DNA of 64,000 nt from Halobacterium noricense (lineage in GTDB: Archaea > Halobacteriota > Halobacteria > Halobacteriales > Halobacteriaceae). This document shows positions 12,109 to 50,514 of this stretch, piece after piece (within the stretch, counting starts at the first letter, position 1; every line of letters begins with the position of its first letter). Both the position numbers and the translations under genes were made by a program. The stretch is from positions 124,001 through 188,000 of the forward strand of contig NZ_CP089469.1 in NCBI RefSeq assembly GCF_021233435.1, written 5' to 3'. The notes beneath the pieces were generated by a model. That model did no database searches and was not told where the DNA came from. It saw only the letters and a program-made list of their open reading frames with translations.

Positions 12109-13500
12109 CAGTACCTCACAAAGCGTCCTCAGTTGAGTCAGTCTGAGGTCTGATTTCTGTTGCGGAGTGCAGTGACCGACCGCGATCTCCTCACAGATCG
12201 ACGGGAAGCTGTCGCTGTCGGCGGCGCTCAGCCGCCGACGCGACAGCGTCGCCACTCAGTGCCGGGGCTGTCCCGGTCAGTGGTTAGCGGTGGAATCGGT
12301 CGTCAGGTGGTCGGTTCGCGGGGACGGCCCGACGCACCGCGAGGGCCGTCCACGCAGCCCGTCGAACCATATTCACGAACTCCTTGTACGGCCACCACCA
12401 GAGGCGACGCCCGCCTCGGCGCGGCGTCGCCACGTATTCATAGTGGAGATACCGCCAAACATTCTGTAGCAGCAGACTCACTACGACGTACAGCAGTCTC
12501 ACCGTCGCGTCTCGTGTCGTTGTCGTCGCTATCGCTTGCTCGGACAAGCGATAGCTCGATTCGATACCGAAGCGTTTGCTGTAGTGGTATCGAGCGTCGC
12601 GTGGTGTCTCGATGAACGGCGCGTCAGCGGCGTAGCCGTGACGCGCTACACCGTTCTCGTCATATCGTCCGTTCAGGTACGTACAGTCGATGTAGACGGG
12701 AAACTCGACGGTCCAGCTGTGACCGTCGAGTTTCCCTGTCAGGTTGTGTTGAATAATGCGACTCCACCCTTCCGAGAGTTCCTGCTGAATCGCCTCACCC
12801 CACCGGATGATCGGGACAACGTAGGCGTAGTTGTGCGCCTGAAGCAGCGTGAGACACTTGCTGTCGTAGAATCCACGATCAAGGTAGACGGCCTTGACCT
12901 CGGTGTCAAGGCCGTCGAGAACACCAAGGAACTCAGCGAGGACGCTGCTGGCGGTGTCGCCGTCTTCGAGACGGCGCACCGCCAGCGTGTAGCGTTTGTT
13001 CTTCACACGCGCGTAGAGTGTGGCGTAGGCGTGGAACGAAGTGGTTCCTCGCTTCGCTTCGGAGTGGTAGAGAGCGTCTGTGTCGTCTTCATCACCGTAG
13101 TAGGGTCGCAGGTGGAGGTCTGCGCAGACCTCCACCTGCTCGGGAAGCAGCTCAACGATGTCTCGTCGAAGAAGCGTGTTAGCGACTCGTTCGAGCCGCT
13201 CCGGCTCGAACTTCGTCCGTAGATGATAGAGAATCGTGTTCGCCGATGGGGAGTCTTCACTGGAGTTGCACAGCGTCGAGATCGAGGTCCCGTCGGCGGT
13301 CGCGCCGACGAGGACCTCGTAGATGTCCTCTGCATCGATTTCAGCGTTGTTGGCGAGATTCAGAGAAACTTCCTCGTCAAGGCAGTTGACGAGGAAGTTA
13401 AGGAGCTGGTCCTCGTGGATTTCATTGTCCGCTTGCTTTGCTTGCTTGGACACAACTCAGCAAGCGGACTCCTTCAACTTGCGAGCTTTGTGAGGTACTG
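12109..13500 (-). mobile_element. ISH3-family insertion sequence, copy a
   Basis: 1392 bp with terminal inverted repeats beginning CAGTACCTCACAAAGC at 12109 and ending in the complement GCTTTGTGAGGTACTG at 13500. A 5-bp target duplication GGTAT is present at 12104-12108 and 13501-13505, as expected for ISH3, so this is a clean insertion. A strong GC-rich hairpin (12213-12248) lies downstream of the transposase stop, and it recurs in the other three copies. Confidence 0.95.
12284..13453 (-). CDS. ISH3-family transposase, copy a
   Basis: 389 residues, full length for ISH3 transposases. It shows HEDQLLNFLVNCLDEEVSLNLANNAEID at the N-terminus, then a DDE-type core with ADLHLRPYYGDEDDTD, VYLDRGFYDSKCLTLLQ, and late KRFGIESSYRLSEQAIATTTT that carries the catalytic Glu. 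The Arg-rich C-terminal tail ATPRRGGRRLWWWPYKEFVNMVRRAAW is shared by all copies. It appears intact. Confidence 0.95.
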   Translation of the reverse strand: MSKQAKQADNEIHEDQLLNFLVNCLDEEVSLNLANNAEIDAEDIYEVLVGATADGTSISTLCNSSEDSPSANTILYHLRTKFEPERLERVANTLLRRDIVELLPEQVEVCADLHLRPYYGDEDDTDALYHSEAKRGTTSFHAYATLYARVKNKRYTLAVRRLEDGDTASSVLAEFLGVLDGLDTEVKAVYLDRGFYDSKCLTLLQAHNYAYVVPIIRWGEAIQQELSEGWSRIIQHNLTGKLDGHSWTVEFPVYIDCTYLNGRYDENGVARHGYAADAPFIETPRDARYHYSKRFGIESSYRLSEQAIATTTTRDATVRLLYVVVSLLLQNVWRYLHYEYVATPRRGGRRLWWWPYKEFVNMVRRAAWTALAVRRAVPANRPPDDRFHR

Positions 13501-22775: not shown

Positions 22776-24164
22776 CAGTACCTCACAAAGCATCGCCGGC
22801 TAATCCGACTTGAGCCATCTGTTCTGTTGTGGTGAGTCGTCGATCACGGTTGAGCAACGCTGATCGAAGGCGGAGCTGTCGCTGTCGGCGGCGCTCAGCC
22901 GCCGACGCGACAGCGTTGCCACTTGCGGAGACGCCGTACTCGGTGGGTGACTACCGGTGGAACCGGTCGTCTGGTGGCCGGTTCGCGGGGACGGCCCGAC
23001 GCACCGCGAGGGCCGTCCACGCTGCCCGTCGAACCATATTCACGAACTCCTTGTACGGCCACCACCAGAGGCGACGCCCGCCTCGGCGCGGCGTCGCCAC
23101 GTATTCGTAGTGCAGATACCGCCACGTGTTCTGCAACAGCAGACTCACCACGACGTACAGCAGTCTCACCGTGGAGTCTCGCGTCGTTGTCGTCGCTATC
23201 GCTTGCTCAGACAACCGATAGCTCGACTCGATACCGAACCGTTTCGAGTAGTGGTATCGAGCGTCGCGTGGATTCTCGATGAACGGCGCGTCAGCGGCGT
23301 AGCCGTGACGCGCCACGCCGTGCTCGTCGTACCGTCCGTTCAGGTACGTACAGTCGATGTAGACGGGAAACTCGACGGTCCAGCTGTGACCGTCGAGTTT
23401 CCCCGTCAGATCGTGTTGGATGACGCGACTCCACCCTTCCGAGAGTTCCTGCTGAATCGCTTCACCCCACCGGATGATCGGGACAACGTAGGCGTAGTTG
23501 TGCGTCTGTAACAGCGTGAGACACTTGCTGTCGTAGAATCCGCGATCAAGATAGACGGCCTTGACGTCGGTGTCAAGGCCGTCGAGGACACCGAGGAACT
23601 CAGCGAGGACGCTGCTGGCGGTGTCGCCGTCTTCGAGACGGCGCACCGCCAGCGTGTAGCGTTTGTTCTTCACACGCGCGTAGAGTGTGGCGTAGGCGTG
23701 GAATGCGGTGGTTCCACGCTTGGCTTCCGAGTGATAGAGGTTCTCCGTGTCGTCTTCATCACCGTAGTAGGGCCGCAGGTGGAGGTCTGCGCAGACCTCC
23801 ACCTGCTCGGGGAGCAGTTCGACGATGTCTCGGCGAAGAAGCGTGTTAGCGACGCGTTCGAGCCGTTCCGGCTCGAACTTCGTCCGTAGATGATAGAGAA
23901 TCGTGTTCGCCGATGGGGAGTCTTCACTGGAGTTGCACAGCGTCGAGATCGAGGTCCCGTCGGCGGTCGCGCCGACGAGGACCTCGTAGATGTCCTCTGC
24001 ACCGATTTCAGCGTTGTTGGCGAGGTTGAGAGAAACTTCCTCGTCAAGGCAGTTGACGAGGAAGTTAAGGAGCTGGTCCTCGTGAATCTCACTGTCTGCT
24101 TGCTGGGTCGTAGACACACCTTCAGCAAGCAGACGTTCTAACTAAGCGGCTTTGTGATGTACTG
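22776..24164 (-). mobile_element. ISH3-family insertion sequence, copy b
   Basis: 1389 bp between CAGTACCTCACAAAGC at 22776 and its complement ending at 24164. The 5-bp target duplication ACTAT is at 22771-22775 and 24165-24169, so this is an intact insertion at the very end of IS630 copy 1. It is almost identical to copy d (48865-50253). The GC-rich hairpin is at 22880-22915. Confidence 0.95.
22951..24117 (-). CDS. ISH3-family transposase, copy b
   Basis: 388 residues. Same domain plan as copy a: N-terminal HEDQLLNFLVNCLDEEVSL, DDE core with VYLDRGFYDSKCLTLLQ, and KRFGIESSYRLSEQAIATTTT. It has GLDTDVKAVYLDRGF where copies a and d have GLDTEVKAV. It appears functional and probably supplies transposase for other copies. 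Confidence 0.95.
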   Translation of the reverse strand: MSTTQQADSEIHEDQLLNFLVNCLDEEVSLNLANNAEIGAEDIYEVLVGATADGTSISTLCNSSEDSPSANTILYHLRTKFEPERLERVANTLLRRDIVELLPEQVEVCADLHLRPYYGDEDDTENLYHSEAKRGTTAFHAYATLYARVKNKRYTLAVRRLEDGDTASSVLAEFLGVLDGLDTDVKAVYLDRGFYDSKCLTLLQTHNYAYVVPIIRWGEAIQQELSEGWSRVIQHDLTGKLDGHSWTVEFPVYIDCTYLNGRYDEHGVARHGYAADAPFIENPRDARYHYSKRFGIESSYRLSEQAIATTTTRDSTVRLLYVVVSLLLQNTWRYLHYEYVATPRRGGRRLWWWPYKEFVNMVRRAAWTALAVRRAVPANRPPDDRFHR

Positions 24165-24169
24165 ACTAT

Positions 24170-35671: not shown

Positions 35672-37069
35672 AGTACCTCACAAAGCATCCACAGCTAGCT
35701 GTTTCTGCGGCCTAAGTTCTGTCTCGAAGCGGTTGTACTGATGGTCTCGATGAGATGATTACGGACGGATCGACGGAGAGCTGTCGCTGTCGGCGGCGGT
35801 CAGCCGCCGACGCGACAGCGTTGCCACTCACTTTGCTGGCTTGCTCGGTCGGTGGTTAGCGGTGGAACCGGTCGTCAGGTGGCCGATTCGCGGGGACGGC
35901 CCGACGCACCGCGAGGGCCGTCCACGCAGCTCGTCGAACCATATTGACGAACTCCTTGTACGGCCACCACCAGAGGCGACGCCCGCCTCGGCGGGGCGTC
36001 GCCACATACTCGTAGTGAAGGTACCGCCAGACGTTCTGTAATAGCAGACTCACCACGACGTACAGCAGCCGTACCGTTGGATCTCGTGTGGTTGTTGTCG
36101 CTATCGCTTGTTCAAACAATCGATAGCTCGACTCGATACCGAACCGCTTGGTGTAGTGGTATCGAGCGTCGCGTGGTGAGTCGATGAACGGCGCGTCAGC
36201 GGCGTAGCCGTGACGCGCCACACCGTTCTCGTCATACTTCCCGTTTAGGTACGTACAGTCGATGTAGACGGGAAACTCGACGGTCCAGCTGTGGCCGTCG
36301 AGTTTCCCTGTCAGATCGTGCTGAATGACACGACTCCACCCTTCCGAGAGCTCTTGCTGAATCGTCTCACCCCACCGGATGATTGGGATCACGTACGCGT
36401 AGTCGTGCGTCTGAAGCAGCGTGAGGCACTTGCTGTCGTAGAATCCGCGATCAAGGTAGACGGCCTTGATCTCGGTGTCAAGGCCGTCGAGAATACCGAG
36501 GAACTCAGCGAGGACGCTGCTGGCGGTGTCGCCGTCTTCGAGACGGCGCACCGCCAGCGTGTAGCGTTTGTTCGTCACACGCGCGTAGAGTGTGGCGTAG
36601 GCGTGGAACGCGGTGGTTCCACGCTTCGCTACCGAGTGATAGAGACCGTCTGTGTCGGCTTTGTCACCGTAGTAGGGTCGCAGGTGGAGGTCTGCGCAGA
36701 CCTCCACCTGCTTGGGGAGCAGTTCATCGATATCCTTCCGAAGGAGCGTGTTAGCGACTCGTTCGAGCCGTTCCGGCTCGAACTTCGTCCGAAGATGGTA
36801 GAGGATCGTGTTCGCAGTGGGTGTATTCTGGCTCGACGCACAGAGCGTAGAGACAGAGGTCCCGTCGGCGCAAGCGCCGACGAGGACCTCATAGATGTCC
36901 TCAGCAGCGATTTCAGCGTTATTTGCTAAAGAGATTGGAACTTCCTCGTCAAGGCGGTTGACGAGAAAGTTAAGAAGTTGGTCCTCGTGAATCTCACCGT
37001 CTGCTTGCTTGTTGGAGTACACATCCTCAGCAAGCAGACGTTCTAACTAACCGGCTTTGTGAAGTACTG
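35672..37069 (-). mobile_element. ISH3-family insertion sequence, copy c (innermost of a nested set)
   Basis: 1398 bp, CAGTACCTCACAAAGC at 35672 to ...GAAGTACTG at 37069. Target duplication AATCT at 35667-35671 and 37070-37074. It is inserted in tnpB. It is the most diverged of the four copies. The conserved GC-rich hairpin is at 35785-35820. Confidence 0.95.
35856..37022 (-). CDS. ISH3-family transposase, copy c
   Basis: 388 residues, full length. It differs from the other copies at many sites (NRLDEEVPISLANNAEIAAEDIYEVLVGACADGTSVSTLCASSQNTPTANTILYHL), yet the catalytic blocks VYLDRGFYDSKCLTLLQTHDYAYVIP and KRFGIESSYRLFEQAIATTTTRD are kept. It is a separate ISH3 subtype. Confidence 0.95.
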   Translation of the reverse strand: MYSNKQADGEIHEDQLLNFLVNRLDEEVPISLANNAEIAAEDIYEVLVGACADGTSVSTLCASSQNTPTANTILYHLRTKFEPERLERVANTLLRKDIDELLPKQVEVCADLHLRPYYGDKADTDGLYHSVAKRGTTAFHAYATLYARVTNKRYTLAVRRLEDGDTASSVLAEFLGILDGLDTEIKAVYLDRGFYDSKCLTLLQTHDYAYVIPIIRWGETIQQELSEGWSRVIQHDLTGKLDGHSWTVEFPVYIDCTYLNGKYDENGVARHGYAADAPFIDSPRDARYHYTKRFGIESSYRLFEQAIATTTTRDPTVRLLYVVVSLLLQNVWRYLHYEYVATPRRGGRRLWWWPYKEFVNMVRRAAWTALAVRRAVPANRPPDDRFHR

Positions 37070-37209
37070 AATCTCGGTTGGGTCGTCGGCCCAGCCATAC
37101 TCCGCGACGGACTGGGCGGCGTAGCGAAACTGCTCGAACGTCTCGTCGAGGACGCTGTGAGCGCCGTCGGGCACGTCGAGTTTCACTTGGATGTTCCGAA
37201 CGACCGCCA
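37070..37209 (-). pseudogene. TnpB N-terminal fragment, separated by ISH3 copy c
   Basis: First 46 codons of the TnpB at 34553-35671, starting at GTG 37209. An AT-rich TTAAATTTTTAAG upstream (near 37237) is a likely promoter. Confidence 0.8.
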
Positions 37210-37351
37210 CACCTCATATGGGTATCTGGAATTACTTAAAAATTTAAGTCCGAATTGGGGAGTCAGCCGGGCTATCGTCAGTGGACTGTTGAGTAAAGCG
37301 GACGCGCTGCCTCCCACCCCTGAAGCGGTGGGTTTCCGCGCTGCTTCCGCT

Positions 37352-37383
37352 ATGAGTACGTTCGTATCAAGAACCGCCTTCAT
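37352..37383 (-). pseudogene. PIN toxin N-terminal fragment
   Basis: MKAVLDTNVL plus part of the next Ile codon, the start of a PIN domain with its first catalytic Asp. The start ATG overlaps the antitoxin stop by 4 bp. The rest of the gene is at 34156-34537. Confidence 0.85.
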
Positions 37384-37643
37384 TCACCAGATCCCCGCGC
37401 TTCATGCACTAACTCATCAACTTCCTCCATCGACAGTTCAACTGTTTCGGCTCGCTCTTCGACCCGCTGTTGGAACTCTTCGACTGACGGGAGTTCGAGT
37501 TTCTTTAGGACGAGCCCGTAGTCGGTTGGGACGACCATCAGCTTCGTTCCCTTCTTGAGCCCGAATTCCTCCCGTAGCCGGCTTGGAATCGTGATTTGGC
37601 CTTTCGATGTTACGGTGGTTACTTCAGGATTGTCGGTGCTCAT
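37380..37643 (-). CDS. AbrB/MazE-like antitoxin
   Basis: 87 residues. The swapped-hairpin DNA-binding domain is VTTVTSKGQITIPSRLREEFGLKKGTKLMVVPTDYGLVLKKL. The C-terminal helix EEFQQRVEERAETVELSMEEVDELVHEARGSGE would bind and block the PIN toxin. The gene overlaps the toxin start by 4 bp, a normal toxin-antitoxin layout. The toxin is broken by an insertion, so this antitoxin is now an orphan. A palindrome just upstream is the probable operator. Confidence 0.85.
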   Translation of the reverse strand: MSTDNPEVTTVTSKGQITIPSRLREEFGLKKGTKLMVVPTDYGLVLKKLELPSVEEFQQRVEERAETVELSMEEVDELVHEARGSGE

Positions 37644-38501: not shown

Positions 38502-38819
38502 TTACTTGGAGGTAACATCGCTGTCCGGTCCTCGATTCGTTTCGACGAGGAACTCTACCGTATATTCCCAAGCATCCAGGTCGTAGTGAATCGTGGCGAC
38601 ATGCGTCCCGGGTTCGTGTGCCTCCAGGTCAACGACGTCGCGGACATCGTCGAATGCTGGCGTTTTCAACTCGGTTCCCCATCCGTAATCCGCCGGACTT
38701 CGGGACGTTGGCGGATCTGAACCAGTAGTGTAGCCGAGGTCACGCTCTCCCTGGGAGTTCTCTCGGATTACGACTTTGTGATGTCCCGCCGCCTCTTCGT
38801 TTGGATCATCGTTAGTCAT
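38502..38819 (-). CDS. Hypothetical protein, last gene of a three-gene operon
   Basis: 105 residues from MTNDDPNEEAAGHHKVVIRENSQGERDLGYTT. The C-terminal half (HVATIHYDLDAWEYTVEFLVETNRGPDSDVTSK) looks like an antiparallel sheet. Its start overlaps the previous gene's stop by 8 bp, so translation is coupled. No family recognised. Confidence 0.6.
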   Translation of the reverse strand: MTNDDPNEEAAGHHKVVIRENSQGERDLGYTTGSDPPTSRSPADYGWGTELKTPAFDDVRDVVDLEAHEPGTHVATIHYDLDAWEYTVEFLVETNRGPDSDVTSK

Positions 38820-39087
38820 AGTCCTCGAAGAGGTCGTCAATCGCAGATTCGATGAATTCATCGCGAAGCTCGCACTCCTTGATTTTTACCTGTGCATCGA
38901 GTGTTCCCGCCAGTTGGTGTGCTAGTGTTCTTGATTCGTCATCAAGGACGTCGCTCATTCCGGAATCAAGTTTCTTGATGATGGCTTCTCGGGCGTCGTT
39001 GGCGGCCTCACGGTTGGTAAAGACACCGTATGGATAGGATCCCGACGGACCGTCTGTATACACGACGAACGCTTTCGTGTTAGTCAT
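38812..39087 (-). CDS. Hypothetical protein, middle gene of a three-gene operon
   Basis: 91 residues from MTNTKAFVVYTDGPSGSYPYGVFTNREAANDAREAIIKKLD. The N-terminal half resembles short beta-alpha-beta peptides that carry a 'VFTNREAA' type helix start. The rest is helical and acidic. It overlaps both neighbours by 8 bp at its start and its stop. No function assigned. Confidence 0.6.
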   Translation of the reverse strand: MTNTKAFVVYTDGPSGSYPYGVFTNREAANDAREAIIKKLDSGMSDVLDDESRTLAHQLAGTLDAQVKIKECELRDEFIESAIDDLFEDYD

Positions 39088-39292
39088 CGATTTCACCTAT
39101 CTCGTGGTCGTCGCTATCTGGGCACTCGCTCGTTTCTGGAGTATTGGCGGGGAGCCAGGAGCTATTACAGACTTTCCGTAACGTCCTATCGCCGCTTTCT
39201 TCTGGGTCATTCATCTGAGCGTACGCTGTTCGGTACCTGCGGCCGACAGCGTCCGCCACCTTGAGAGTAGTTACCTCGGTGTGTGTTCTCAT
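39080..39292 (-). CDS. Hypothetical protein, first gene of a three-gene operon
   Basis: 70 residues, MRTHTEVTTLKVADAVGRRYRTAYAQMNDPEESGDRTLRKVCNSSW. It ends in an acidic tail. Two cysteines (C42, C58 region) are present but no clear motif. A divergent AT-rich promoter region separates it from the AddB-like gene. Confidence 0.55.
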   Translation of the reverse strand: MRTHTEVTTLKVADAVGRRYRTAYAQMNDPEESGDRTLRKVCNSSWLPANTPETSECPDSDDHEIGEIDD

Positions 39293-39377
39293 GCAGACTC
39301 CTAAAAGAACCTCGCACTAAATGGTGCTGGTCAGGGGAGTAAGCGGACCGCTTACCGGATAAATCAGAGGATTGTTT

Positions 39378-39398
39378 CCGAGTTATCAGACAACTCGG
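39378..39398. promoter_or_regulatory. Inverted repeat between the small operon and the addB-like gene
   Basis: CCGAGTT and AACTCGG arms of 7 bp with a 7-bp spacer. It lies in the divergent promoter region, ahead of a strong TATA-like stretch TATTATAATAC (about 39457-39468) that serves the plus-strand gene. Confidence 0.4.
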
Positions 39399-39554
39399 AA
39401 GTGAAATGTTAGACTGGAGGTGGTCCAGCGAAACAATATTACTAGCGGGCTTTGAAAATATTATAATACAGATCACCATCCTCCAATCACAATACGTGGC
39501 AAGGATTCGGTGAGTAGCGAGCTAGTCCCTCTTGGACATCACTCTCCCACCTCA

Positions 39555-40358
39555 ATGACTCAGACACAGCAAGAACAACTTCCGAAGAATCTGACTCTCC
39601 ACGTAGGAAACGAAGCATCTCTCTTAGAACGTCCAGACCACTCAACCCAACAGACGGAGTTGGTGTTGGCTCCCGTGGAGCTACACCGTCGAAACATCCA
39701 ACGCAGACTGCGAGAATCCCAGACCCCAAAAACAAGTTTCCAATTCAGCGACCCGACAACAGTTGGGAAACAGCTCCTTGACGTCGCTGGCCTGCCGACA
39801 ACGACGGTCGACCGCATCGATCGTTTATCGATGATTCGCTCCATACTGTCGGACGAGGATGTGTCGATCGCGTCACCGGTTGTGCCGTCGGAGCCACAGA
39901 GTGTTGAGCAGATTCGGACGGAGATTGAGGCTGTGACCGGCTTCCATCCGGGGCGACTCAACATCGTCCAAGATGTCGTTGGTGGGCTTCAAGCGCCGAT
40001 CAATGCGGATGGCGCTGAGCTGCTTGACGCCGCAGTCAGTATCGAACAGGCACTCCGCCAGGTGACATCGACATCGACGTCGGTCTCTGACGTGGCGTTC
40101 GTTCGCCGCGCGGCGCGAGAGCTCCTTGCGACTGATGGTGCGATTTGGGAAGACGCGTTTCCAGACGTCGAGCGTGTATCACTAGTTGGTGTGAGCAGTG
40201 TTCCCGCTGCCTACATTGACCTCCTGCACGCCGTCCTGGCGTCGGTGGCCGTGCCGGTGCACGTCCATTTCCGGCGTGGGACTGGCTCATACCTCACTCA
40301 GCGGGCCTCGGAGTTGTTCGACGTCGCCAGCCCAGGAATGGTGGTGTTCGAGTCGTGA
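39555..40358 (+). CDS. AddB/RexB-like helicase-nuclease subunit, N-terminal part
   Basis: 267 residues from the ATG at 39555 (a GTG at 39510 is also in frame). It opens LTLHVGNEASLLERPDHSTQQTELVLAPVELHRRNIQRRL, an inactive version of the AddB P-loop region. Further along are VERVSLVGVSSVPAAYIDLLHAVLASVAVPVHVHFRRG. The stop overlaps the next ORF by GTGA (40355-40358). Alignment logic says the two ORFs together make one AddB-like chain, so this is either a split, translationally coupled gene or a single-base frameshift. Confidence 0.55.
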   Translation: MTQTQQEQLPKNLTLHVGNEASLLERPDHSTQQTELVLAPVELHRRNIQRRLRESQTPKTSFQFSDPTTVGKQLLDVAGLPTTTVDRIDRLSMIRSILSDEDVSIASPVVPSEPQSVEQIRTEIEAVTGFHPGRLNIVQDVVGGLQAPINADGAELLDAAVSIEQALRQVTSTSTSVSDVAFVRRAARELLATDGAIWEDAFPDVERVSLVGVSSVPAAYIDLLHAVLASVAVPVHVHFRRGTGSYLTQRASELFDVASPGMVVFES

Positions 40359-41599
40359 CCGCGTCCGGTCGGCTCGCCCTTGCTGAGCCACTCGATGGCG
40401 CTGATGTCCCAGTTGCGGAGGTGGTGACGACGACACGCCGTGAGGAGGCGCGAACCGTGATGGCGACTGTAGCCACGTTACGTGATGTTGGCGTGCCGGT
40501 CCGTGACATCGCTGTGGTTGCACGCGACATGGACCAGTACGAGGAGCCACTGTATCGGGCTGCGATCCAGTACGGGATTGCGCCCGTGTTCTGGGTGCAG
40601 CTCAGAGTAACCCAGACGCGGCCATACGCACTCATTGAGTCAGTCTGCGACGTACTGGGCGCGGAGGAGGTGTCTCGGGAGGTCCTATGTCGCCCACTCG
40701 AACATCGCTGGTGTCCCCCATCGGAAACATCGCCGTCATCATCGTGGCCACTTGATTCACAGACAGTCCAGCGGTTGATGCAGGAGCTACCAGATGAACC
40801 ACGAACACTCGAAGCGTGGCGGGACGATCTTGCCACAACTCAGGAGAGAGATGACTGTCTCATGACGTACATTACGTGGCTCACCGACTGTCCAGAGCCA
40901 ACGCCGACTGTAGTCACAGATCGCCTCCTCAGTGTTGTTGACCGGTATGAGGAGCTCGGGCTGCCGGTGACGAAAACGCGTGATTGCCCGGCGCTTATTG
41001 AGACAGAACGGGACGCGCGAGCAATCATTCGCGTGAAAACGCTCATCCAGCAACTTCGTTATAAGTACGCTGACCGCCTCGATGAAGGATCGCTTGACCA
41101 GTCATGGAGTAGCGTCGCGGAGTTGAGTCAGTTGATCGCAACCCAGCGACCCGGTCGACGAGAACACTCGAACGCACATGCCGTGGATGTCTTCGAAGCG
41201 AACGACATCTGGCTGTTGGACATCCCGTACGTCATCGCCGTTGGATTAGTGGACGGTGAGTGGCCGACCCAACCGGAGAGCGTTGTTCCCGCAGAACTTC
41301 AGGAAGAAATCCTTCGGGGAGAAGGGCGTACAGGAGCGCTTGCACCGCGGACGGCGTGGACGACTGGCCGAGACCGTGACCAGTTTGCTGACACCGTGCA
41401 GGCCGCTGGAGACGGGTTGGTCGTGACTCGCCACACCGAATCCACGTCTGGTGACGAGCGACGACCATCTCCGTTACTGGACCAGTTGAACACCAAGGTC
41501 GTGCCAGCCGATGAGCGACGACGACTGGTGAGTCCCAGCCGAGACCTCCCAGACGCTGTCGAAGCGATGCTCAACGAGGAGGAGACCAATGCCAAGTGA
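40355..41599 (+). CDS. AddB/RexB-like helicase-nuclease subunit, C-terminal part
   Basis: 414 residues from a GTG at 40355. Helicase-like C-terminal features are REEARTVMATVATLRDVGVPVRDIAVVARDMDQYEEPLYRAAIQYGI, then DIWLLDIPYVIAVGLVDGEWPTQPESVVPAEL, and GDGLVVTRHTESTSGDERRPSPLLDQL. These match AddB, RexB and RecC patterns. There is no PD-(D/E)XK nuclease domain, so it would be a structural or scanning subunit. The stop overlaps the AddA-like start by 11 bp. The small, overlapping gene layout supports one complex. Confidence 0.6.
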   Translation: MTASGRLALAEPLDGADVPVAEVVTTTRREEARTVMATVATLRDVGVPVRDIAVVARDMDQYEEPLYRAAIQYGIAPVFWVQLRVTQTRPYALIESVCDVLGAEEVSREVLCRPLEHRWCPPSETSPSSSWPLDSQTVQRLMQELPDEPRTLEAWRDDLATTQERDDCLMTYITWLTDCPEPTPTVVTDRLLSVVDRYEELGLPVTKTRDCPALIETERDARAIIRVKTLIQQLRYKYADRLDEGSLDQSWSSVAELSQLIATQRPGRREHSNAHAVDVFEANDIWLLDIPYVIAVGLVDGEWPTQPESVVPAELQEEILRGEGRTGALAPRTAWTTGRDRDQFADTVQAAGDGLVVTRHTESTSGDERRPSPLLDQLNTKVVPADERRRLVSPSRDLPDAVEAMLNEEETNAK

Positions 41600-44500
41600 C
41601 GAGCCGATTCGACTGCGGAACGCACAACGAACCATTCGTGATGCGTACTTCCAACATGAGTCTGGATTGTTCACGCTCAACTGCGTTCCGGGCGCAGGGA
41701 AGTCTGAGGTCTCCGACCACATCGGTGCAGAGGACATCCTTCGTCGGTATGTCGCGGGGGATCCAACACCCGAGCAGCGAGTCGCAGTCATCTCATTCAA
41801 CCGCAGCGAGGCGGAGAATCTCATCCCGGACATCTGTACCCGGCTTCGAGAACTCGTCGAACACGATCTGATCCCCGCCGCGAACGATGTATCTGACGAG
41901 GAACTGGAATACCTGATTCAGCGAATCAGACACGCTCCTTTCGTCGGAACGATTGACGGTGTCCTTCGGGACGTGCTGAGTGATATCGCTCCCGACATCG
42001 GTTTCGAGGAGATGCCAACCGTCGGAAACCCCGCTCGACAGAAACAGCTGCATACCACCTGTTACCGCCGTATTCAGGAGGACTCCGACATCGTACAGCG
42101 ACTGGCGCGGCTGGAGGCTGCGTACCCCGCTGGTGAGCACGGTGACGACATGACCGAGATGCTTGAGACTGCGGTCAGGTACTGCCGAAACCGCCGACTC
42201 TCAACCGATGAGTTCCGGACTGGTCTCGAACAGACCGTTGACGACACCTACCCGGACGGCGCTCCAGACTCGTTCGGTGACATCATCACCGCAATCGAAC
42301 GCTATGTCGGCGCAGACGTTGACAAGAATGCCTACGACGATATTGGCGATGAGGAGCTCGACGCGATCTGTGACGCAGATGCGCGTCTCTACGACGCCTG
42401 GCGTGCTAGAGTCGACGACTTCTGCGCGGTCCTTGAGACGTACCGGCGAACGTACCGGCATGCCATCCGTGACGAGGAGGTTGTGTCACACACGGATGTT
42501 GCGTACCTCGTCGACGCGTACTTTGCTGGCCGACTCGATGACATTGATGACGCTCAGCGATCCCGCATCCAACAGCGGTATCACACGCGGATTCGGAGCC
42601 TGATTATCGACGAAGCGCAGGACGTCTCTGCGATCCAGCACGCGGCACTCTCGCACCTAGTGACATCCAATACGCGGGTGTTTTGCGCTGGAGATCTCCT
42701 CCAGAGCATCTACCGCTGGCGGCACGCTGACCCAACTCTCTTCGAGACCGCGGCAGACGAAGGCGAGTATTTAGGAGTTGATTGGGATATTCACGAGCAT
42801 CGGACTGCGACAACAACGTACCGATGTGTTCCGGACATCGCTAGTGCGATCAACGAAATCTCCGAGGCGACACTCACAGATCCTGCCCGTGGAAACCTCG
42901 GCGACGTAAATGTCCGATATCCGGGGCTCGAAGCGAGTCGGGACTCAACGACTGGTTCGAGTATTCATATCGCGGCCTTCGACCCAATTCCGGCACATCC
43001 TGATTCAACTACCTGGGTCAATCCTGACGAGGAGAGCGGGGAAGCGGCGAAGCTGGCAACGCTTATTGCCAATGGGCTCGCAGACGGAACGTTCACTGAC
43101 GACAACGATGCCCCTCTCGGAATCACCGTGTTGTTCCGGTGGTCGGCGAAAATGGACGAGTACGAGGACGCGTTTGACGAGGAAGATGTGAGCGTGCGGA
43201 CAGCGAGTGAGAACCTCTTCGAATGTCCGGTCGTGAATACGGTACTCGATGTGTGTGAATGGTTAGTCGAGCCGGCTGACCCTGAACAGACTCGCCAGCT
43301 TGTCACGGAGTCGAGTCTCGGACTTGAGTCGCTCAAACCTGCCTTCGAAACACATTGTTGGAGCCTTGATGCGGTGCTCAGCGACTGCGAACTCACGGAC
43401 GCCCACCAAGACATCCTTAACAGTCTCATCGAGCTCCGCAACCGGCGTGAACGGTTCTTCTCGCAGCCTGCTGGAACATACGTCGAGGACATCATCAAGG
43501 CGCTTGCTCTCCGGGCAGACCCCCACGAACGCTTCGACATCACCCCGGCACAGCGAGTCGCCAACCTCGATGCACTCGTTGATACCCTCCAAGAGTGGGA
43601 AACGGACGACCACATAGACCTACGCGAACTTTCCGAGCTGATCGACCCGTTCCGCCAACAGGCCCACTTGGGCCCGAACCAGCCAAGCACCGCTGACACA
43701 AGCCACGATGTGGAATTTCGGACAATCCACGACGCAAAAGGCGACCAAGACGACGTCATAGTCGTAGCGAATCCTGGCTTCGACCTCTGGAAGCACGGGC
43801 CACAAGCGCAACGCTTCATTTCTCAAGGCAGTATCAACGCCCTCAGGCCACCAACAAACACCGACACCCCCGAAGACGTGTCGCTCCCACCGTTCACCAA
43901 CGGACTGTACGAGCCAGAAAACCAGTGGGACCGCGACGTCGGATTACGATGGACGACAAGTCACTGGTGTAATAATATCGAGGACGCTGCAGACCCGACA
44001 TCGTTGCTCGGTCCCGACCGACTCGTCCGAGCGGCGGCGAACAAGCGAGCAGAAGCATGGCGACTGCTGTACGTCGCTCTCACACGGGCACAAGACCACC
44101 TCGTTGTCCCACTCCCACGGTCACGCCCCTATGAACCACGGCCACGTGACCGGTGGCTCGACACGATTCGAGACGCCCTCAACTTCACCGGCGATCAGAC
44201 AGGGACGTACACGGTTGATACAGAACCGCATTCCTTCGACGTCGGCGTCAACGACGTCGCCCTGGATGCAACATGGCGGAATACGTCCCGTTCCCGGGAT
44301 GACGACGTCGCCGTGAACCCCCCGTGCCGCGCGGATCTCGCTCCCTGGGTGCCACGGTTCGTCAACCCGAGTACGATGTACCCACTCACCGAAGCCCCCG
44401 ACACACACGTACTCAACCACCTCCTCGGGAACGCCCTACATACAGACGCGAACGACGTTCCGGACCACGTCCCCCTCCGGTTCGACACCCTCGGCCCAGA

Positions 44501-45068
44501 CGACATCGGCTCCTGCTTACACAAGGTACTGACCACACTCGTCGACCGTGACGTACCGGAACCCACACTCCGCAACGCCGGCGACGAGGTTCGACACGTG
44601 TTCGACGACATCCTGAACGACCATGCTAAACGGATCGGCGACGATGAACGCGACGAACTGTTCACCTTCTTCGAAGAGGAGGTACTGGACGACTTCCTCG
44701 CGTCAGATCTATGGGCGCGAATCCAGCGGGCCGAGCGAGTTACCGTGGAGAGACCAATCGATGGCCTCGTGACGAACAACGACGTTGAGATTGAGGTCCA
44801 CGGAACGAGCGATTTCGTCGTCGAGTCACCCTCAGGCGAGCAGCATGTGTCCGACGTGAAGATCACACTGACGAAGCCAACGGCAGAGACCCAACGGCGG
44901 TACAAACTTCAAGTAACGGCCTACTCGTACCTGTTTGAGCAGCAAGAACACTCGACAACCCCCGTAGACGGGACAGTGGAAACCTTCGGAGTTGCGCGTG
45001 ACACGATCGACCCATCTTGGCCGGCTGATATTGTCGAACGGAGACTTACAGCTCTCATTCGACAGTAG
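41589..45068 (+). CDS. AddA-like UvrD/Rep helicase with C-terminal RecB-family nuclease domain
   Basis: 1159 residues. Helicase motifs: Walker A FTLNCVPGAGKSE (33-40), RSLIIDEAQDVSAIQ (motif II, about 340), RVFCAGDLLQSIYRWRHA (motif III), FRTIHDAKGDQDDVIVVANPG (motif V) and WRLLYVALTRAQDHLVV (motif VI). The last 130 residues hold a PD-(D/E)XK nuclease: HGTSDFVVE, VSDVKITL, and KLQVTAYSYLFEQ match the G-x-D, D-x-K and Q-x-x-x-Y motifs. It is thus a processive helicase-nuclease for double-strand ends. With the AddB-like gene it forms an AddAB-like system, unusual in archaea. Confidence 0.8.
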   Translation: MPSDEPIRLRNAQRTIRDAYFQHESGLFTLNCVPGAGKSEVSDHIGAEDILRRYVAGDPTPEQRVAVISFNRSEAENLIPDICTRLRELVEHDLIPAANDVSDEELEYLIQRIRHAPFVGTIDGVLRDVLSDIAPDIGFEEMPTVGNPARQKQLHTTCYRRIQEDSDIVQRLARLEAAYPAGEHGDDMTEMLETAVRYCRNRRLSTDEFRTGLEQTVDDTYPDGAPDSFGDIITAIERYVGADVDKNAYDDIGDEELDAICDADARLYDAWRARVDDFCAVLETYRRTYRHAIRDEEVVSHTDVAYLVDAYFAGRLDDIDDAQRSRIQQRYHTRIRSLIIDEAQDVSAIQHAALSHLVTSNTRVFCAGDLLQSIYRWRHADPTLFETAADEGEYLGVDWDIHEHRTATTTYRCVPDIASAINEISEATLTDPARGNLGDVNVRYPGLEASRDSTTGSSIHIAAFDPIPAHPDSTTWVNPDEESGEAAKLATLIANGLADGTFTDDNDAPLGITVLFRWSAKMDEYEDAFDEEDVSVRTASENLFECPVVNTVLDVCEWLVEPADPEQTRQLVTESSLGLESLKPAFETHCWSLDAVLSDCELTDAHQDILNSLIELRNRRERFFSQPAGTYVEDIIKALALRADPHERFDITPAQRVANLDALVDTLQEWETDDHIDLRELSELIDPFRQQAHLGPNQPSTADTSHDVEFRTIHDAKGDQDDVIVVANPGFDLWKHGPQAQRFISQGSINALRPPTNTDTPEDVSLPPFTNGLYEPENQWDRDVGLRWTTSHWCNNIEDAADPTSLLGPDRLVRAAANKRAEAWRLLYVALTRAQDHLVVPLPRSRPYEPRPRDRWLDTIRDALNFTGDQTGTYTVDTEPHSFDVGVNDVALDATWRNTSRSRDDDVAVNPPCRADLAPWVPRFVNPSTMYPLTEAPDTHVLNHLLGNALHTDANDVPDHVPLRFDTLGPDDIGSCLHKVLTTLVDRDVPEPTLRNAGDEVRHVFDDILNDHAKRIGDDERDELFTFFEEEVLDDFLASDLWARIQRAERVTVERPIDGLVTNNDVEIEVHGTSDFVVESPSGEQHVSDVKITLTKPTAETQRRYKLQVTAYSYLFEQQEHSTTPVDGTVETFGVARDTIDPSWPADIVERRLTALIRQ

Positions 45069-45312
45069 CCGGCAATCGCATTGCAACACCCAGATTTGTA
45101 AAACGCTTTTTGTAGAGGATTGTTGGTGGAGAGCCTTCCGGCGATTTCGCTGTCGTTGTGTCTCACTGGTGGACGGGACCGAACAGGGGTGTCACCGTTT
45201 CTACCGAAGGTTCGATTGACCCAGACCGAGACGAGAGTTCGCTACCAACAAACTCCGCCACAAGAGCGGGGGTGGAAACAGATTTGACTGGCGACGGGAA
45301 ACAGGAGACACG

Positions 45313-45567
45313 ATGGCAGAGCGAGAGGCAGACACCGCGGACAGTGGAGCGTTGCCAGTGGACCCGAGGGACCTGCTAGCGGTGGCAACTGACGAGTCCG
45401 TCGACCCGTACCGACGGGAAGCCGCTATCAAACGCCTCGGGGAAGTCTCTGGACCCTCAGAACGCTATCTAGAGGCGTTGGCTAGCGGTGAGGCGTTGTC
45501 GCCGATTGAGCAGTCGTTGGCGACGACCGTCCTCGACGAGCGGTTGCGTGCGCGGACCAACGAGTAG
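45313..45567 (+). CDS. Small acidic hypothetical protein
   Basis: 84 residues: ADTADSGALPVDPRDLLAVATDESVDPYRREAAIKRLGEVSGPSERYLEALASGEALSPIEQSLATTVLDERLR. The central part looks like two HEAT-type helix pairs. It follows the helicase gene on the same strand by 244 bp. No known family. Confidence 0.5.
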   Translation: MAEREADTADSGALPVDPRDLLAVATDESVDPYRREAAIKRLGEVSGPSERYLEALASGEALSPIEQSLATTVLDERLRARTNE

Positions 45568-46059
45568 CCCTAGGTGGGCCACCGTCGAGACAGTAGTGAG
45601 AACCCCGACCAGTGTTATCAGGCGTAATAGCTGCCCCAGTACGCTTATCTGTGCGGGTTGATGGGTCGTGATTGGTGGCCGCGGAGGTTGTCACACGCTC
45701 CACACCCGCCACCTGATACCCCTTCCTCACGTACCTACTGAGAACGGGAAGCCAGCGACCACTACGTTGGCGTGGATGCGTACAGCTGGGGGGAGACGAG
45801 AGTGCTCCGGGCCGCCGGCTGCTGGCAGGAAACATCCACGCGTGTGGGAATAAGTGGCAGTCATCTGACGGCGAGTCAGGTCGCTAATCTCCCAAGAGGC
45901 TATCTGGTACCAGCGACTGCCAACAGGCGTGTCGTCTGTGGCTGATCTAGGTAGACGAGGGCTCTGAGCAGTCTTCCTGTCTAGTTGCGCCGCTCATAGC
46001 AAAGGTACTACGGTCGAGGTGTTCCGAAGGCCTATATTTTCTACCGTGAACTAGGGTGT
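45568..46059. other. Intergenic, no supported gene
   Basis: About 490 bp with low coding signal on both strands. A TATA-like CCTATATTTT near 46030 serves the following PadR-type gene. Nothing else recognised. Confidence 0.4.
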
Positions 46060-46341
46060 ATGCACGATTTGACGGGGTTTCAGCGTGATCTGCTGTACGT
46101 CATTGGCGGGTTAGATGAGCCACACGGGCTTGCTGTGAAGGCTGAAATGGAGGAGTACTACGAATCCGAAATCCATCACGGGCGGCTCTATCCGAATCTT
46201 GATACACTCGTTGACAAGGGCTTGGTTGAGAAAGGCGAGCTAGACCAGCGCACAAACTCCTATGCGCTCACCCGGCGTGGCCGCCGCGAGCTTACTGCGC
46301 GACGCGACTGGGAAACCCAGTACGTCAACATCAGCGAGTAA
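46060..46341 (+). CDS. PadR-family transcriptional regulator
   Basis: 93 residues. The winged helix is LTGFQRDLLYVIGGLDEPHGLAVKAEMEEYYESEIHHGRLYPNLDTLVDKGLVEKGELDQRTNSYALTRRGRREL, the standard PadR pattern, with the wing at NSYALT. It is short, with no dimerisation helices beyond the core, like phiH-type repressors of haloarchaeal plasmids and viruses. A TATA box about 25 bp upstream gives a leaderless start. Targets unknown. Confidence 0.85.
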   Translation: MHDLTGFQRDLLYVIGGLDEPHGLAVKAEMEEYYESEIHHGRLYPNLDTLVDKGLVEKGELDQRTNSYALTRRGRRELTARRDWETQYVNISE

Positions 46342-46429: not shown

Positions 46430-46990
46430 TCACTCAAGCAGGCCGAGTTCAGTGAGGCGGTCTTCGACGTGTTTCAGTGCGGACTGTGCGTCCTCAGATT
46501 CATTTGCACCGGTAATCACGAGTTTCCCACTGCCGAAGAGGAGAACGACGACGTCGGGGTCCTCAAGGCGGTAGACGAGGCCAGGAAACTGTTCGGGTTC
46601 ATACTCTATTTGCTCCAACCCCAGACCGATCGCAATCGCGTTCAAGTTCAACGATTGCTTGAGATCGGCACTGGAGACGATATTCTGCACCTCAATCGGC
46701 GGATTACTCGCGACATCGATGCCTAACTCGCGGATGTCCTCAAACACGATCTCGAGGGCTTCGTGAACGTCATCGACGCTTTTCGCGCCGGTGCAGACGA
46801 CTTTCCCCGAGCGGAAGATCAGCGTGGCTGACTTCGGCTCCTGGAGGCGGTAGACGATTCCAGGAAAGTCCTCGGGGTTGTACTCCGCGCCGGGAAGGTC
46901 TGTGGAGAGTTGGTCGAGGGCGAGTTCTTGGCCGATATCGCTGGATGCAACGACGTTCTCGATATGGATCGTGTCCGCCAGAGTGCTCAT
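46430..46990 (-). CDS. tbp: TATA-box-binding protein (TBP)
   Basis: 186 residues with the two direct repeats of the TBP saddle: IHIENVVASSDIGQELALDQLSTDLPGAEYNPEDFPGIVYRLQEPKSATLIFRSGKVVCTGAKS and VQNIVSSADLKQSLNLNAIAIGLGLEQIEYEPEQFPGLVYRLEDPDVVVLLFGSGKLVITGANES. The FPGIVYRL/FPGLVYRL, SGK..CTGAK and DNA-contact positions are conserved. Haloarchaea carry extra tbp genes on plasmids to select gene sets with particular TFBs. No tfb gene is seen in this window. Confidence 0.95.
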   Translation of the reverse strand: MSTLADTIHIENVVASSDIGQELALDQLSTDLPGAEYNPEDFPGIVYRLQEPKSATLIFRSGKVVCTGAKSVDDVHEALEIVFEDIRELGIDVASNPPIEVQNIVSSADLKQSLNLNAIAIGLGLEQIEYEPEQFPGLVYRLEDPDVVVLLFGSGKLVITGANESEDAQSALKHVEDRLTELGLLE

Positions 46991-48864: not shown

Positions 48865-50253
48865 CAGTACCTCACAAAGCATCGCCGGCTAATCCGACTT
48901 GAGCCATCTGTTCTGTTGTGGTGAGTCGTCGATCACGGTTGAGCAACGCTGATCGAAGGCGGAGCTGTCGCTGTCGGCGGCGCTCAGCCGCCGACGCGAC
49001 AGCGTTGCCACTTGCGGAGACGCCGTACTCGGTGGGTGACTACCGGTGGAACCGGTCGTCTGGTGGCCGGTTCGCGGGGACGGCCCGACGCACCGCGAGG
49101 GCCGTCCACGCTGCCCGTCGAACCATATTCACGAACTCCTTGTACGGCCACCACCAGAGGCGACGCCCGCCTCGGCGCGGCGTCGCCACGTATTCGTAGT
49201 GCAGATACCGCCACGTGTTCTGCAACAGCAGACTCACCACGACGTACAGCAGTCTCACCGTGGAGTCTCGCGTCGTTGTCGTCGCTATCGCTTGCTCAGA
49301 CAACCGATAGCTCGACTCGATACCGAACCGTTTCGAGTAGTGGTATCGAGCGTCGCGTGGATTCTCGATGAACGGCGCGTCAGCGGCGTAGCCGTGACGC
49401 GCCACGCCGTGCTCGTCGTACCGTCCGTTCAGGTACGTACAGTCGATGTAGACGGGAAACTCGACGGTCCAGCTGTGACCGTCGAGTTTCCCCGTCAGAT
49501 CGTGTTGGATGACGCGACTCCACCCTTCCGAGAGTTCCTGCTGAATCGCTTCACCCCACCGGATGATCGGGACAACGTAGGCGTAGTTGTGCGTCTGTAA
49601 CAGCGTGAGACACTTGCTGTCGTAGAATCCGCGATCAAGATAGACGGCCTTGACCTCGGTGTCAAGGCCGTCGAGTACACCAAGGAACTCAGCGAGGACG
49701 CTGCTGGCGGTGTCGCCGTCTTCGAGACGGCGCACCGCCAGCGTGTAGCGTTTGTTCTTCACACGCGCGTAGAGTGTGGCGTAGGCGTGGAATGCGGTGG
49801 TTCCACGCTTGGCTTCCGAGTGATAGAGGTTCTCCGTGTCGTCTTCATCACCGTAGTAGGGCCGCAGGTGGAGGTCTGCGCAGACCTCCACCTGCTCGGG
49901 GAGCAGTTCGACGATGTCTCGGCGAAGAAGCGTGTTAGCGACGCGTTCGAGCCGTTCCGGCTCGAACTTCGTCCGTAGATGATAGAGAATCGTGTTCGCC
50001 GATGGGGAGTCTTCACTGGAGTTGCACAGCGTCGAGATCGAGGTCCCGTCGGCGGTCGCGCCGACGAGGACCTCGTAGATGTCCTCTGCACCGATTTCAG
50101 CGTTGTTGGCGAGGTTGAGAGAAACTTCCTCGTCAAGGCAGTTGACGAGGAAGTTAAGGAGCTGGTCCTCGTGAATCTCACTGTCTGCTTGCTGGGTCGT
50201 AGACACACCTTCAGCAAGCAGACGTTCTAACTAAGCGGCTTTGTGATGTACTG
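48865..50253 (-). mobile_element. ISH3-family insertion sequence, copy d
   Basis: 1389 bp, CAGTACCTCACAAAGC at 48865 to ...ATGTACTG at 50253. Flanking 5-mers ATAAT and AGTGT do not match, so there is no target duplication and the flanks come from different places. It is nearly identical to copy b. Hairpin at 48969-49004. Confidence 0.95.
49040..50206 (-). CDS. ISH3-family transposase, copy d
   Basis: 388 residues, the same as copy b except GLDTEVKAV (copy b has GLDTDVKAV). All catalytic blocks are intact. Homologous recombination between copies b and d could delete or duplicate the intervening 26 kb. Confidence 0.95.
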   Translation of the reverse strand: MSTTQQADSEIHEDQLLNFLVNCLDEEVSLNLANNAEIGAEDIYEVLVGATADGTSISTLCNSSEDSPSANTILYHLRTKFEPERLERVANTLLRRDIVELLPEQVEVCADLHLRPYYGDEDDTENLYHSEAKRGTTAFHAYATLYARVKNKRYTLAVRRLEDGDTASSVLAEFLGVLDGLDTEVKAVYLDRGFYDSKCLTLLQTHNYAYVVPIIRWGEAIQQELSEGWSRVIQHDLTGKLDGHSWTVEFPVYIDCTYLNGRYDEHGVARHGYAADAPFIENPRDARYHYSKRFGIESSYRLSEQAIATTTTRDSTVRLLYVVVSLLLQNTWRYLHYEYVATPRRGGRRLWWWPYKEFVNMVRRAAWTALAVRRAVPANRPPDDRFHR

Positions 50254-50514
50254 AGTGTGAAAAACTGTCTGAGTAGAGGGGGCGAGATTTCTTTTAAAAC
50301 GATTCCGTGGATCGGTGGAAATTGAGTTTCCTCCGTATGTTTCGGAGGTGATCAGCCCGGTGCGTAGCTCAATAGATGATACCTGTAGTCGTTTACGATC
50401 TGCCCGGAATTGGCGGAACGACTGAGATGCGTCTCTATGGCTGAGTCCATCCGTCGTTCTCCTACGACCGACAAGCGACGCCGGTAAATAAGGAGAGTGT
50501 GTTTGGGTACTGAA

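What the first reader, a model, noticed from the sequence alone, without database searches (positions are those of the whole stretch)
38502..45068. AddAB-like helicase-nuclease locus in an archaeal plasmid
An AddA-like protein with complete helicase motifs and a C-terminal RecB-type nuclease follows an AddB-like chain that has no nuclease domain. Archaea usually process ends with HerA-NurA and Mre11-Rad50. The locus is flanked by three small overlapping ORFs of unknown function on the other strand. It could be an anti-plasmid/anti-virus or a plasmid recombination system.
Basis: partly seen in the sequence, partly recalled or inferred. Interest (0 to 1): 0.65.

Follow-up and report, generated by a model that had tools for sequence, protein, structure and literature searches.

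The report
Archaeal AddAB with a split AddB
Salt-loving archaea carry a DNA-end unwinding and cutting machine related to the bacterial AddAB enzyme, but with its scaffold subunit encoded as two separate genes and stripped of its nuclease, which is a previously unannotated variant of a well-known kind of enzyme.

Summary
AddA-like 41589-45068 is a UvrD-type helicase with an intact C-terminal PD-(D/E)XK nuclease, closest among solved structures to Bacillus subtilis AddA. The AddB-like chain is two genes: addB1 (39510-40358) and addB2 (40355-41599). Sequence profiles barely see them. A predicted structure of a fused relative (pLDDT 91) matches B. subtilis AddB residues 2-718 (Z 23.8) and lacks its nuclease/Fe-S end. 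The break lies between the two helicase lobes. All 29 split loci scanned, plus 16 loci from a second collection, have an ATGA/GTGA stop-start overlap there, so it is neither a sequencing error nor decay. AddA and addB2 co-occur in 45 of 45 carriers among 292 haloarchaeal genomes. 16 carriers have one fused addB of about 700 aa. The window copy is 99% identical over 6.9 kb to one in another archaeal family, so it moved recently. The three small opposite-strand ORFs are not part of it. Best reading: an accessory, horizontally spread, three-gene AddAB-type engine with one motor and one nuclease, acting on DNA ends. Whether it serves defence or recombination is not decided. New variant of a known kind.

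The parts
39510..40358 (+). addB1: 282 aa, first RecA-like lobe (1A/1B equivalent) of an AddB-type inactive helicase, no Walker A
   Evidence: ORF; conserved in 23 aligned loci; 0 of 45 AddB1/fused AddB have GxGK[ST] in the first 120 residues; aligned to residues 1-268 of the fused relative modelled
40355..41599 (+). addB2: 414 aa, second lobe (2A/2B equivalent) of AddB; no C-terminal nuclease
   Evidence: TIGR02773 E=0.0093; AF2 model pLDDT 81 aligns to UvrD 260/290-648 and AddB 292-716
40355..40358 (+). GTGA stop-start overlap between addB1 and addB2
   Evidence: RTGA in 29 of 29 split loci and 16 of 16 loci of the second collection (includes some of the same genomes)
41589..45068 (+). addA: 1159 aa, SF1A UvrD/AddA-type helicase with C-terminal PD-(D/E)XK nuclease
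   Evidence: Pfam, NCBIfam addA_Gpos 1e-20, PDB profile search best hit B. subtilis AddA 2.4e-30
41589..41599 (+). 11-nt overlap of addB2 end and addA start
   Evidence: genes overlap in 26 of 28 split loci examined
44487..44963 (+). PD-(D/E)XK nuclease domain of addA (residues 967-1125)
   Evidence: Pfam PDDEXK_1 2e-10; invariant H978, D1075, K1091, Q1108, Y1112
39459..39468 (+). TATA-like stretch 42-51 nt upstream of addB1 (weak, by eye)
   Evidence: sequence read
39376..46242 (+). block 99.0% identical to Halohasta litorea R30 (another family): recently transferred unit
   Evidence: 6879 aligned positions
38502..39292 (-). three small overlapping ORFs, judged NOT part of the system
   Evidence: middle ORF in 3 of 194 genomes, one genus; the three clusters are seen near only one other addAB locus
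45313..45567 (+). 84-aa ORF inside the transferred block, role unknown, seen in 3 loci only; not assigned to the system

Best explanation
The locus encodes a three-polypeptide AddAB-type helicase-nuclease. AddA is the only motor (a UvrD-type helicase, expected to run 3'-5') and carries the only nuclease. AddB1 and AddB2 are the two RecA-like lobes of an AddB-type dead helicase, made from overlapping genes by coupled translation, and most likely assemble into one AddB-shaped scaffold that grips a DNA end, separates the strands and feeds them past the AddA nuclease. The complex would unwind and degrade or resect linear double-stranded DNA. It is an accessory module that has spread horizontally among haloarchaeal plasmids and chromosomes. 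Shown here: gene order, domain content, intact motifs, split position, conserved overlap, co-occurrence, purifying selection, recent transfer. Inferred: coupled translation, complex formation, activity, strand polarity and biological role.
For: AddA. AddB fold: fused relative model pLDDT 91.4, top five Foldseek and VIA matches are B. subtilis AddB, Z 23.1-23.8, 600-608 residues, AddB 2-718; window AddB2 model matches UvrD 260/290-648 and AddB 292-716. Split: 29 of 29 and 16 of 16 loci with ATGA/GTGA, tree of 69 AddA. Partners: 45 of 45 co-occurrence, overlap of addB2 and addA in 26 of 28. Constraint: dN/dS 0.13-0.17. Mobility: 99.0% over 6.9 kb to Halohasta litorea; 28 plasmid records match AddA, 15 covering at least 80% of it.
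Against: No biochemical data. By sequence AddB2 reaches only E=0.0093 to AddB and the fused-AddB profile finds no AddB in the PDB, so AddB identity rests on predicted structure. Window AddB2 alone scores as high with UvrD/Rep (Z 19.2) as with AddB (Z 18.4). AddB1 alone was not folded. Complex formation was not modelled. In one genome (G223) two AddA copies exist, one about 7 kb from the AddB genes and one with no AddB in the stretch fetched. NurA is nearly universal (238 of 242), so a need for another end resector is not evident. Against the two nearest copies dN/dS is higher (0.21-0.55), on very few changes.
Confidence: 0.75

Rival explanations
1. The system is primarily a defence module: it degrades linear or broken DNA of viruses and plasmids, and the loss of the AddB nuclease and any Chi-type switch makes it destruction-only.
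For: Patchy presence (45 of 292), recent transfer between families, presence on many plasmids, extra AddAB-type pairs in some of the same genomes. In B. subtilis AddAB the AddA nuclease is thought to cut the 3'-ended strand and the AddB nuclease the 5'-ended strand (recalled), so an AddA-only enzyme would make recombinogenic 3' tails poorly.
Against: No enrichment of defence genes seen: of 143 neighbouring proteins scanned, no PADLOC family matched more than one (no background set was compared). In one genus, all 6 sampled genomes (G042, G074, G090, G191, G241, G280) carry it, and most share neighbours, which looks like a vertically kept gene. No known defence-system gene lies in the overlapping operon.
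Confidence: 0.4
2. The system is primarily a recombination or repair enzyme (end resection), kept by plasmids and some chromosomes to help maintain large replicons.
For: AddAB and RecBCD are repair enzymes. The single nuclease of RecBCD serves both strands (recalled), so one nuclease can suffice. Present in all 6 sampled genomes of one genus. 2 of the 4 genomes without a NurA match carry this family (both are one genus).
Against: NurA is present in 238 of 242 haloarchaea including the window's genome. Most haloarchaea sampled (247 of 292) live without this family. The NurA association rests on one genus and is not significant.
Confidence: 0.4
3. addB1 and addB2 are one gene read by programmed -1 frameshifting, so the protein is a single AddB and nothing is split.
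For: The two ORFs are always in the -1 relation, and 16 genomes have a fused gene.
Against: 29 of 29 junctions are RTGA stop-start overlaps, the usual sign of coupled translation. Slippery-type heptamers occur within 60 nt upstream of the stop in only 7 of 29 loci, at differing places.
Confidence: 0.05
4. A Gabija-like system: a UvrD-type helicase acting with an unrelated partner.
For: PADLOC GajB models match the helicase core (best 7.4e-16).
Against: GajB matches cover only the UvrD core. AddA and AddB models score better and the nuclease domain is AddA-like. No ATPase-TOPRIM GajA gene is matched among the nine ORFs scanned.
Confidence: 0.02

Closest known systems
AddAB (RexAB) of Bacillus subtilis, PDB 3U44/4CEH
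   Same: AddA domain order UvrD helicase plus C-terminal PD-(D/E)XK nuclease; AddB inactive-helicase fold (Z 23.8 over 604 residues); addB directly precedes addA
   Different: AddB is two genes split between lobes; the C-terminal AddB nuclease and Fe-S cluster region (after residue about 718) is missing; no Walker A in AddB; far below NCBIfam cut-offs
RecBCD of Escherichia coli
   Same: One active nuclease in the complex; the RecC-like partner is an inactive helicase
   Different: No RecD found next to the locus; the scaffold has no nuclease-like domain at all, whereas RecC keeps a degenerate one (PMC1185551, passages read); RecB is a more distant match than AddA (2.3e-7 against 2.4e-30)
AdnAB of mycobacteria
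   Same: UvrD-type motor with PD-(D/E)XK nuclease, two helicase-like bodies
   Different: AdnAB has two motors and two nucleases (recalled); here one of each
Canonical-looking haloarchaeal AddAB pair on the same replicon (C2:361512-368328)
   Same: Same replicon, same kind of enzyme
   Different: AddB there is one 1062-aa protein with a clear PD-(D/E)XK nuclease (2.1e-34) and AddA scores 4.9e-107 to addA_alphas
Gabija GajB
   Same: UvrD-type helicase core
   Different: No nuclease fusion in GajB (recalled), different partner, match limited to the core

Membership tests
AddAB | AddA: UvrD-type helicase with C-terminal PD-(D/E)XK nuclease | tested here: met
AddAB | AddB: inactive-helicase fold homologous to AddA/RecC | tested here: met
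   (predicted structures; sequence alone inconclusive)
AddAB | AddB has a C-terminal PD-(D/E)XK nuclease with Fe-S cluster cysteines | tested here: not met
   no nuclease match in either ORF; fold match ends at AddB residue 718; no CxxC..C pattern in AddB2 of the split/fused clade
AddAB | AddB is one polypeptide | tested here: not met
   two ORFs in 29 of 29 loci of the split type; one polypeptide in the fused clade
AddAB | addB and addA adjacent and co-occurring | tested here: met
   45 of 45 genomes co-occur; adjacent in all split and fused loci fetched except G223
AddAB | NCBIfam equivalog cut-offs for AddA and AddB | tested here: not met
   73.3 bits against 707.65 and 13.6 against 903.7
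AddAB | ATP-dependent unwinding and degradation of duplex ends, Chi response | not testable with these tools
   needs purified proteins
RecBCD | RecD motor subunit | tested here: inconclusive
   no recD match among the nine ORFs scanned; the rest of the genome was not searched for it
RecBCD | RecC with degenerate nuclease-like domain | tested here: not met
   AddB1+AddB2 and the fused homologue end before that region
AdnAB | two active motors and two nucleases | tested here: not met
   no Walker A in 45 AddB1/fused sequences, no nuclease in AddB
Gabija | GajA ATPase-TOPRIM partner | tested here: not met
   no GajA match in the nine ORFs scanned around the locus

The most novel reading that the evidence does not exclude
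A one-motor, one-nuclease AddAB whose scaffold is assembled from two separately encoded helicase lobes, spread as a mobile module in haloarchaea. The lobe break would make assembly of the machine a control point, and loss of the AddB nuclease would turn a repair enzyme into a dedicated DNA-end destroyer. The tree suggests that the split state is old in this clade and that the lobes were re-fused at least twice.
Probability: 0.35. Interest if true: 0.65.

Novelty: new variant of a known kind. Interest (0 to 1): 0.5.

Why it matters
Common accounts give archaea HerA-NurA and Mre11-Rad50 for end processing and describe AddAB/RecBCD as bacterial (PMC12977600 and PMC9960219, passages read). About a sixth of sampled haloarchaea (45 of 292) carry an AddAB-type engine whose scaffold genes are annotated as hypothetical proteins in the two plasmid records read. 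The conserved lobe-level split and the loss of the second nuclease give a natural experiment on what each AddB part does, testable in Haloferax volcanii. It also bears on how large haloarchaeal plasmids meet viruses and rival plasmids.

Tried and rejected
Frameshift or assembly artefact for the two AddB ORFs: rejected, since the break is at the same place with an RTGA overlap in 29 of 29 loci, and in 16 of 16 loci of a second collection that partly overlaps the first. Programmed frameshifting: no shared slippery site. Small opposite-strand ORFs as part of the system: rejected (only the 94-aa ORF was searched). Conserved third gene: none found; upstream neighbours differ between loci (HTH proteins, HNH, integrase, HD).

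Defence-island context: 143 of 204 neighbouring proteins were scanned. I dropped the loci with the long AddB type (L090-L096), proteins of 900 aa or more, those 7 kb or more away, and the shortest ones beyond 145 rows. Before the 204, four near-duplicate loci, L088, L097, L099, L101 and proteins under 140 aa had been left out and each cluster thinned to one member. No PADLOC family matched more than one protein at 1e-8, and only 25 of 56 families were printed. No control set was run, so this is weak evidence against defence enrichment. Pfam on the same set shows mixed housekeeping and mobile genes, with Phage_integrase in 3 of 143 the most frequent.

Viral collections: AddB2 and fused AddB gave no relatives in IMG/VR and AddB2 none in the phage records. 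The AddA profile found only short matches to the UvrD core in IMG/VR (80 of 242 kept). Rad50 zinc hook was not found in the own genome, but the control Haloferax volcanii was also not hit, so it says nothing. My regex for the nuclease histidine missed 20 of 59 sequences because it was too strict; the alignment has that residue in 19 of 19. Motif V was matched in 56 of 59 and motif VI in 53 of 59 by regex. The phylum-wide profile search listed 18 of 392 genomes, all of the window's order. Its sampling differs and it misses several genomes found there only because they were not drawn, so it is not used as a rate.

Tree: 69 AddA, quick LG+G4, long branches flagged (L142 worst); root and direction of split-to-fused changes are provisional. 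Literature: no paper on haloarchaeal AddAB or split AddB found (listings and abstracts seen); only open-licence papers are held. Passages were read from PMC7776575, PMC1185551, PMC6452273, PMC4158269, PMC10117719, PMC9051519, PMC6063281, PMC12704722, PMC12977600 and PMC9960219. Domain limits of UvrD (2A beginning near residue 281) and the strand roles of the AddA and AddB nucleases are recalled, not from a call.
Full report
What is in the window. Three genes on the + strand overlap head to tail: addB1 39510-40358 (282 aa), addB2 40355-41599 (414 aa) and addA 41589-45068 (1159 aa). The window is part of a 368,639-bp contig, one of three contigs of a 3.3-Mb genome. The genus is that of G023, whose contig length equals that of a Halobacterium sp. 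TGN-42-S1 record, so the organism is most likely a Halobacterium species.

AddA. Pfam finds UvrD-helicase (1.2e-17), UvrD_C (3.2e-8) and PDDEXK_1 (2e-10) in order. NCBIfam's best match is addA_Gpos at 1e-20, far under the cut-off (73.3 of 707.65 bits). A profile of 19 relatives finds B. subtilis AddA first in the PDB (2.4e-30), before AdnB (5e-25), Rep/UvrD/PcrA, RecB (2.3e-7) and GajB (2.4e-7). Helicase residues GxGK, DEAQD, GD..Q, KG and the motif VI arginine, and nuclease residues H978, D1075, K1091, Q1108 and Y1112, are invariant in the 19. In 59 split- or fused-type AddA, motifs I and II are present in 59 of 59, motif III in 58, V in 56 and VI in 53 by regex. So it is one intact motor and one intact nuclease.

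AddB. By sequence the two ORFs are nearly invisible: nothing in Pfam above a cut-off, TIGR02773 at 0.0093 for addB2, and no AddB in the PDB for a profile of 16 fused homologues. A fused homologue from Haloferax elongans (678 aa, 32-row alignment including the window's two ORFs) was predicted at pLDDT 91.4. Its five best Foldseek matches and its five best VIA-align matches are the five solved B. subtilis AddB chains: Z 23.1-23.8, 600-608 residues, rmsd 4.8-5.0, covering AddB residues 2-718. The AddB chains are 1132-1156 residues long; the rest, which holds the nuclease and Fe-S cluster (recalled), is not matched. The window's own AddB2 (pLDDT 81) aligns to UvrD 260/290-648 and to AddB 292-716; Z is 19.2 for UvrD and 18.4 for AddB. 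AddB1 aligns to residues 1-268 of the fused model and AddB2 from about 278-287, apart from a few stray end residues, and the model's secondary structure shows a loop at 276-287 between two alpha/beta lobes, each with a helical insertion. Hence the gene break separates lobe 1 (1A/1B) from lobe 2 (2A/2B). None of 45 AddB1 or fused sequences has a Walker A in its first 120 residues.

Is the split real? Of the 45 carrier genomes, loci from 43 were examined: 27 genomes (29 loci) have the split and 16 the fused form; G106 (cut by the contig end) and G196 (not fetched) were not examined. All 29 split loci have ATGA or GTGA at the junction, as do 16 of 16 loci from named genome records, some of them the same genomes. 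addB2 and addA also overlap in 26 of 28 split loci (L087, where they lie apart, was left out). dN/dS against three relatives at 60-75% nucleotide identity is 0.13-0.17 for each gene, with dS above 1 and so near saturation; against the two nearest copies it is 0.21-0.55 on few changes. On a quick tree of 69 AddA the split form needs two changes to fused if split is ancestral: one clade of 18 and one single. This is provisional, as the outgroup is distant and several branches are long.

Distribution. AddA of this family (E at most 1e-100) is in 45 of 292 Halobacteria genomes, and addB2 in the same 45. Of the 50 genomes with any addB2 match, four more match only weakly through a distinct type with a 1114-1202-aa open frame, and one (G078) holds only a remnant with two stops. 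AddA matches are on 28 plasmid records, 15 of them over at least 80% of its length; several others lie on contigs of 2-3 Mb. In one genus all 6 sampled genomes have it and most share neighbours. The window copy shares 6,879 aligned positions at 99.0% with Halohasta litorea R30, of another family, at window 39376-46242. That copy and the one in G018 also share, next to addB1, an HD-domain gene (Pfam HD_3 2.3e-34) that is missing in the window; a short repeat (ATCAGACAAGTCG) flanks it in G018, so the window probably lost it. Outside the window's order no match was listed in a phylum-wide sample of 392 genomes, and none was found in phage or IMG/VR collections for AddB.

What it does. From AddAB biochemistry (recalled) the motor and nuclease predict ATP-driven unwinding and cutting at duplex ends, with AddB1+AddB2 as scaffold. 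With the AddB nuclease gone, only the AddA nuclease remains. If it cuts one strand, as in B. subtilis AddAB (recalled), the enzyme would destroy ends rather than make 3' tails; if it serves both strands, as RecB does (recalled), it could still resect. This is the key test. Context does not decide: no PADLOC family matched more than one of 143 neighbours, NurA is present in 238 of 242 genomes including the window's, and 2 of the 4 without it carry this family but are one genus.

Comparison and verdict. It works like AddAB/RecBC and descends from that kind, but it fails two features of AddAB proper (one-piece AddB, AddB nuclease). I file it as a new variant of the AddAB kind, not as a plain member. 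A second, canonical-looking AddAB pair sits on the same replicon at C2:361512-368328. Its AddB is 89-94% identical in genomes of several family codes (f1-f4 among them) and has matches in 65 of 284 genomes, some of them weak. I found no paper on them in eight searches of an open-licence library.

Noticed in passing
G000:C2:361512-368328 (outside the window, same replicon; L097): A second AddAB pair: 1062-aa AddB with PD-(D/E)XK nuclease and 1212-aa AddA. AddB is 89-94% identical in genomes of several families and matched in 65 of 284 genomes (some weakly), so it seems to be spreading fast.
   Followed up: partly
window 39376-39405; L103:11996-12938: An HD-domain (HD_3, YfbR-like) gene stands next to addB1 in Halohasta litorea and G018 but is missing in the window; a short repeat flanks it in G018.
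   Followed up: partly
window 12196-13500, 22862-24165, 35768-37070, 48951-50254: Four copies (88-100%) of one repeat with a 388-aa transposase-like ORF; two of them bracket the addB1-addB2-addA region.
   Followed up: no
L090-L096: A further haloarchaeal AddAB type with 1114-1213-aa AddB ORFs; four of the four tested matched a CxxC..C pattern and the seven C-termini share cysteines like an Fe-S staple, though Pfam finds no nuclease in the one AddB scanned whole or in part of another.
   Followed up: partly
window 46433-46990 (-): Replicon-borne TATA-binding protein (Pfam TBP 3.3e-60).
   Followed up: no
window 37183-37643 (-): MazE-type antitoxin (2.3e-9) followed by a 66-aa ORF with no Pfam match that looks like a cut-down toxin partner.
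   Followed up: no
G000:C2:332888-333163: Second copy (93%) of the 94-aa small ORF at window 38812-39096, away from the AddAB locus.
   Followed up: no
genomes G222, G237 (one genus), G024, G162: No NurA match in these 4 of 242 genomes; the first two carry the AddAB family studied here and G162 the canonical-looking type.
   Followed up: no
G223:C3 (L087, L088): Two near-identical AddA copies in one genome, one about 7 kb from the AddB genes and one with no AddB in the stretch fetched.
   Followed up: no
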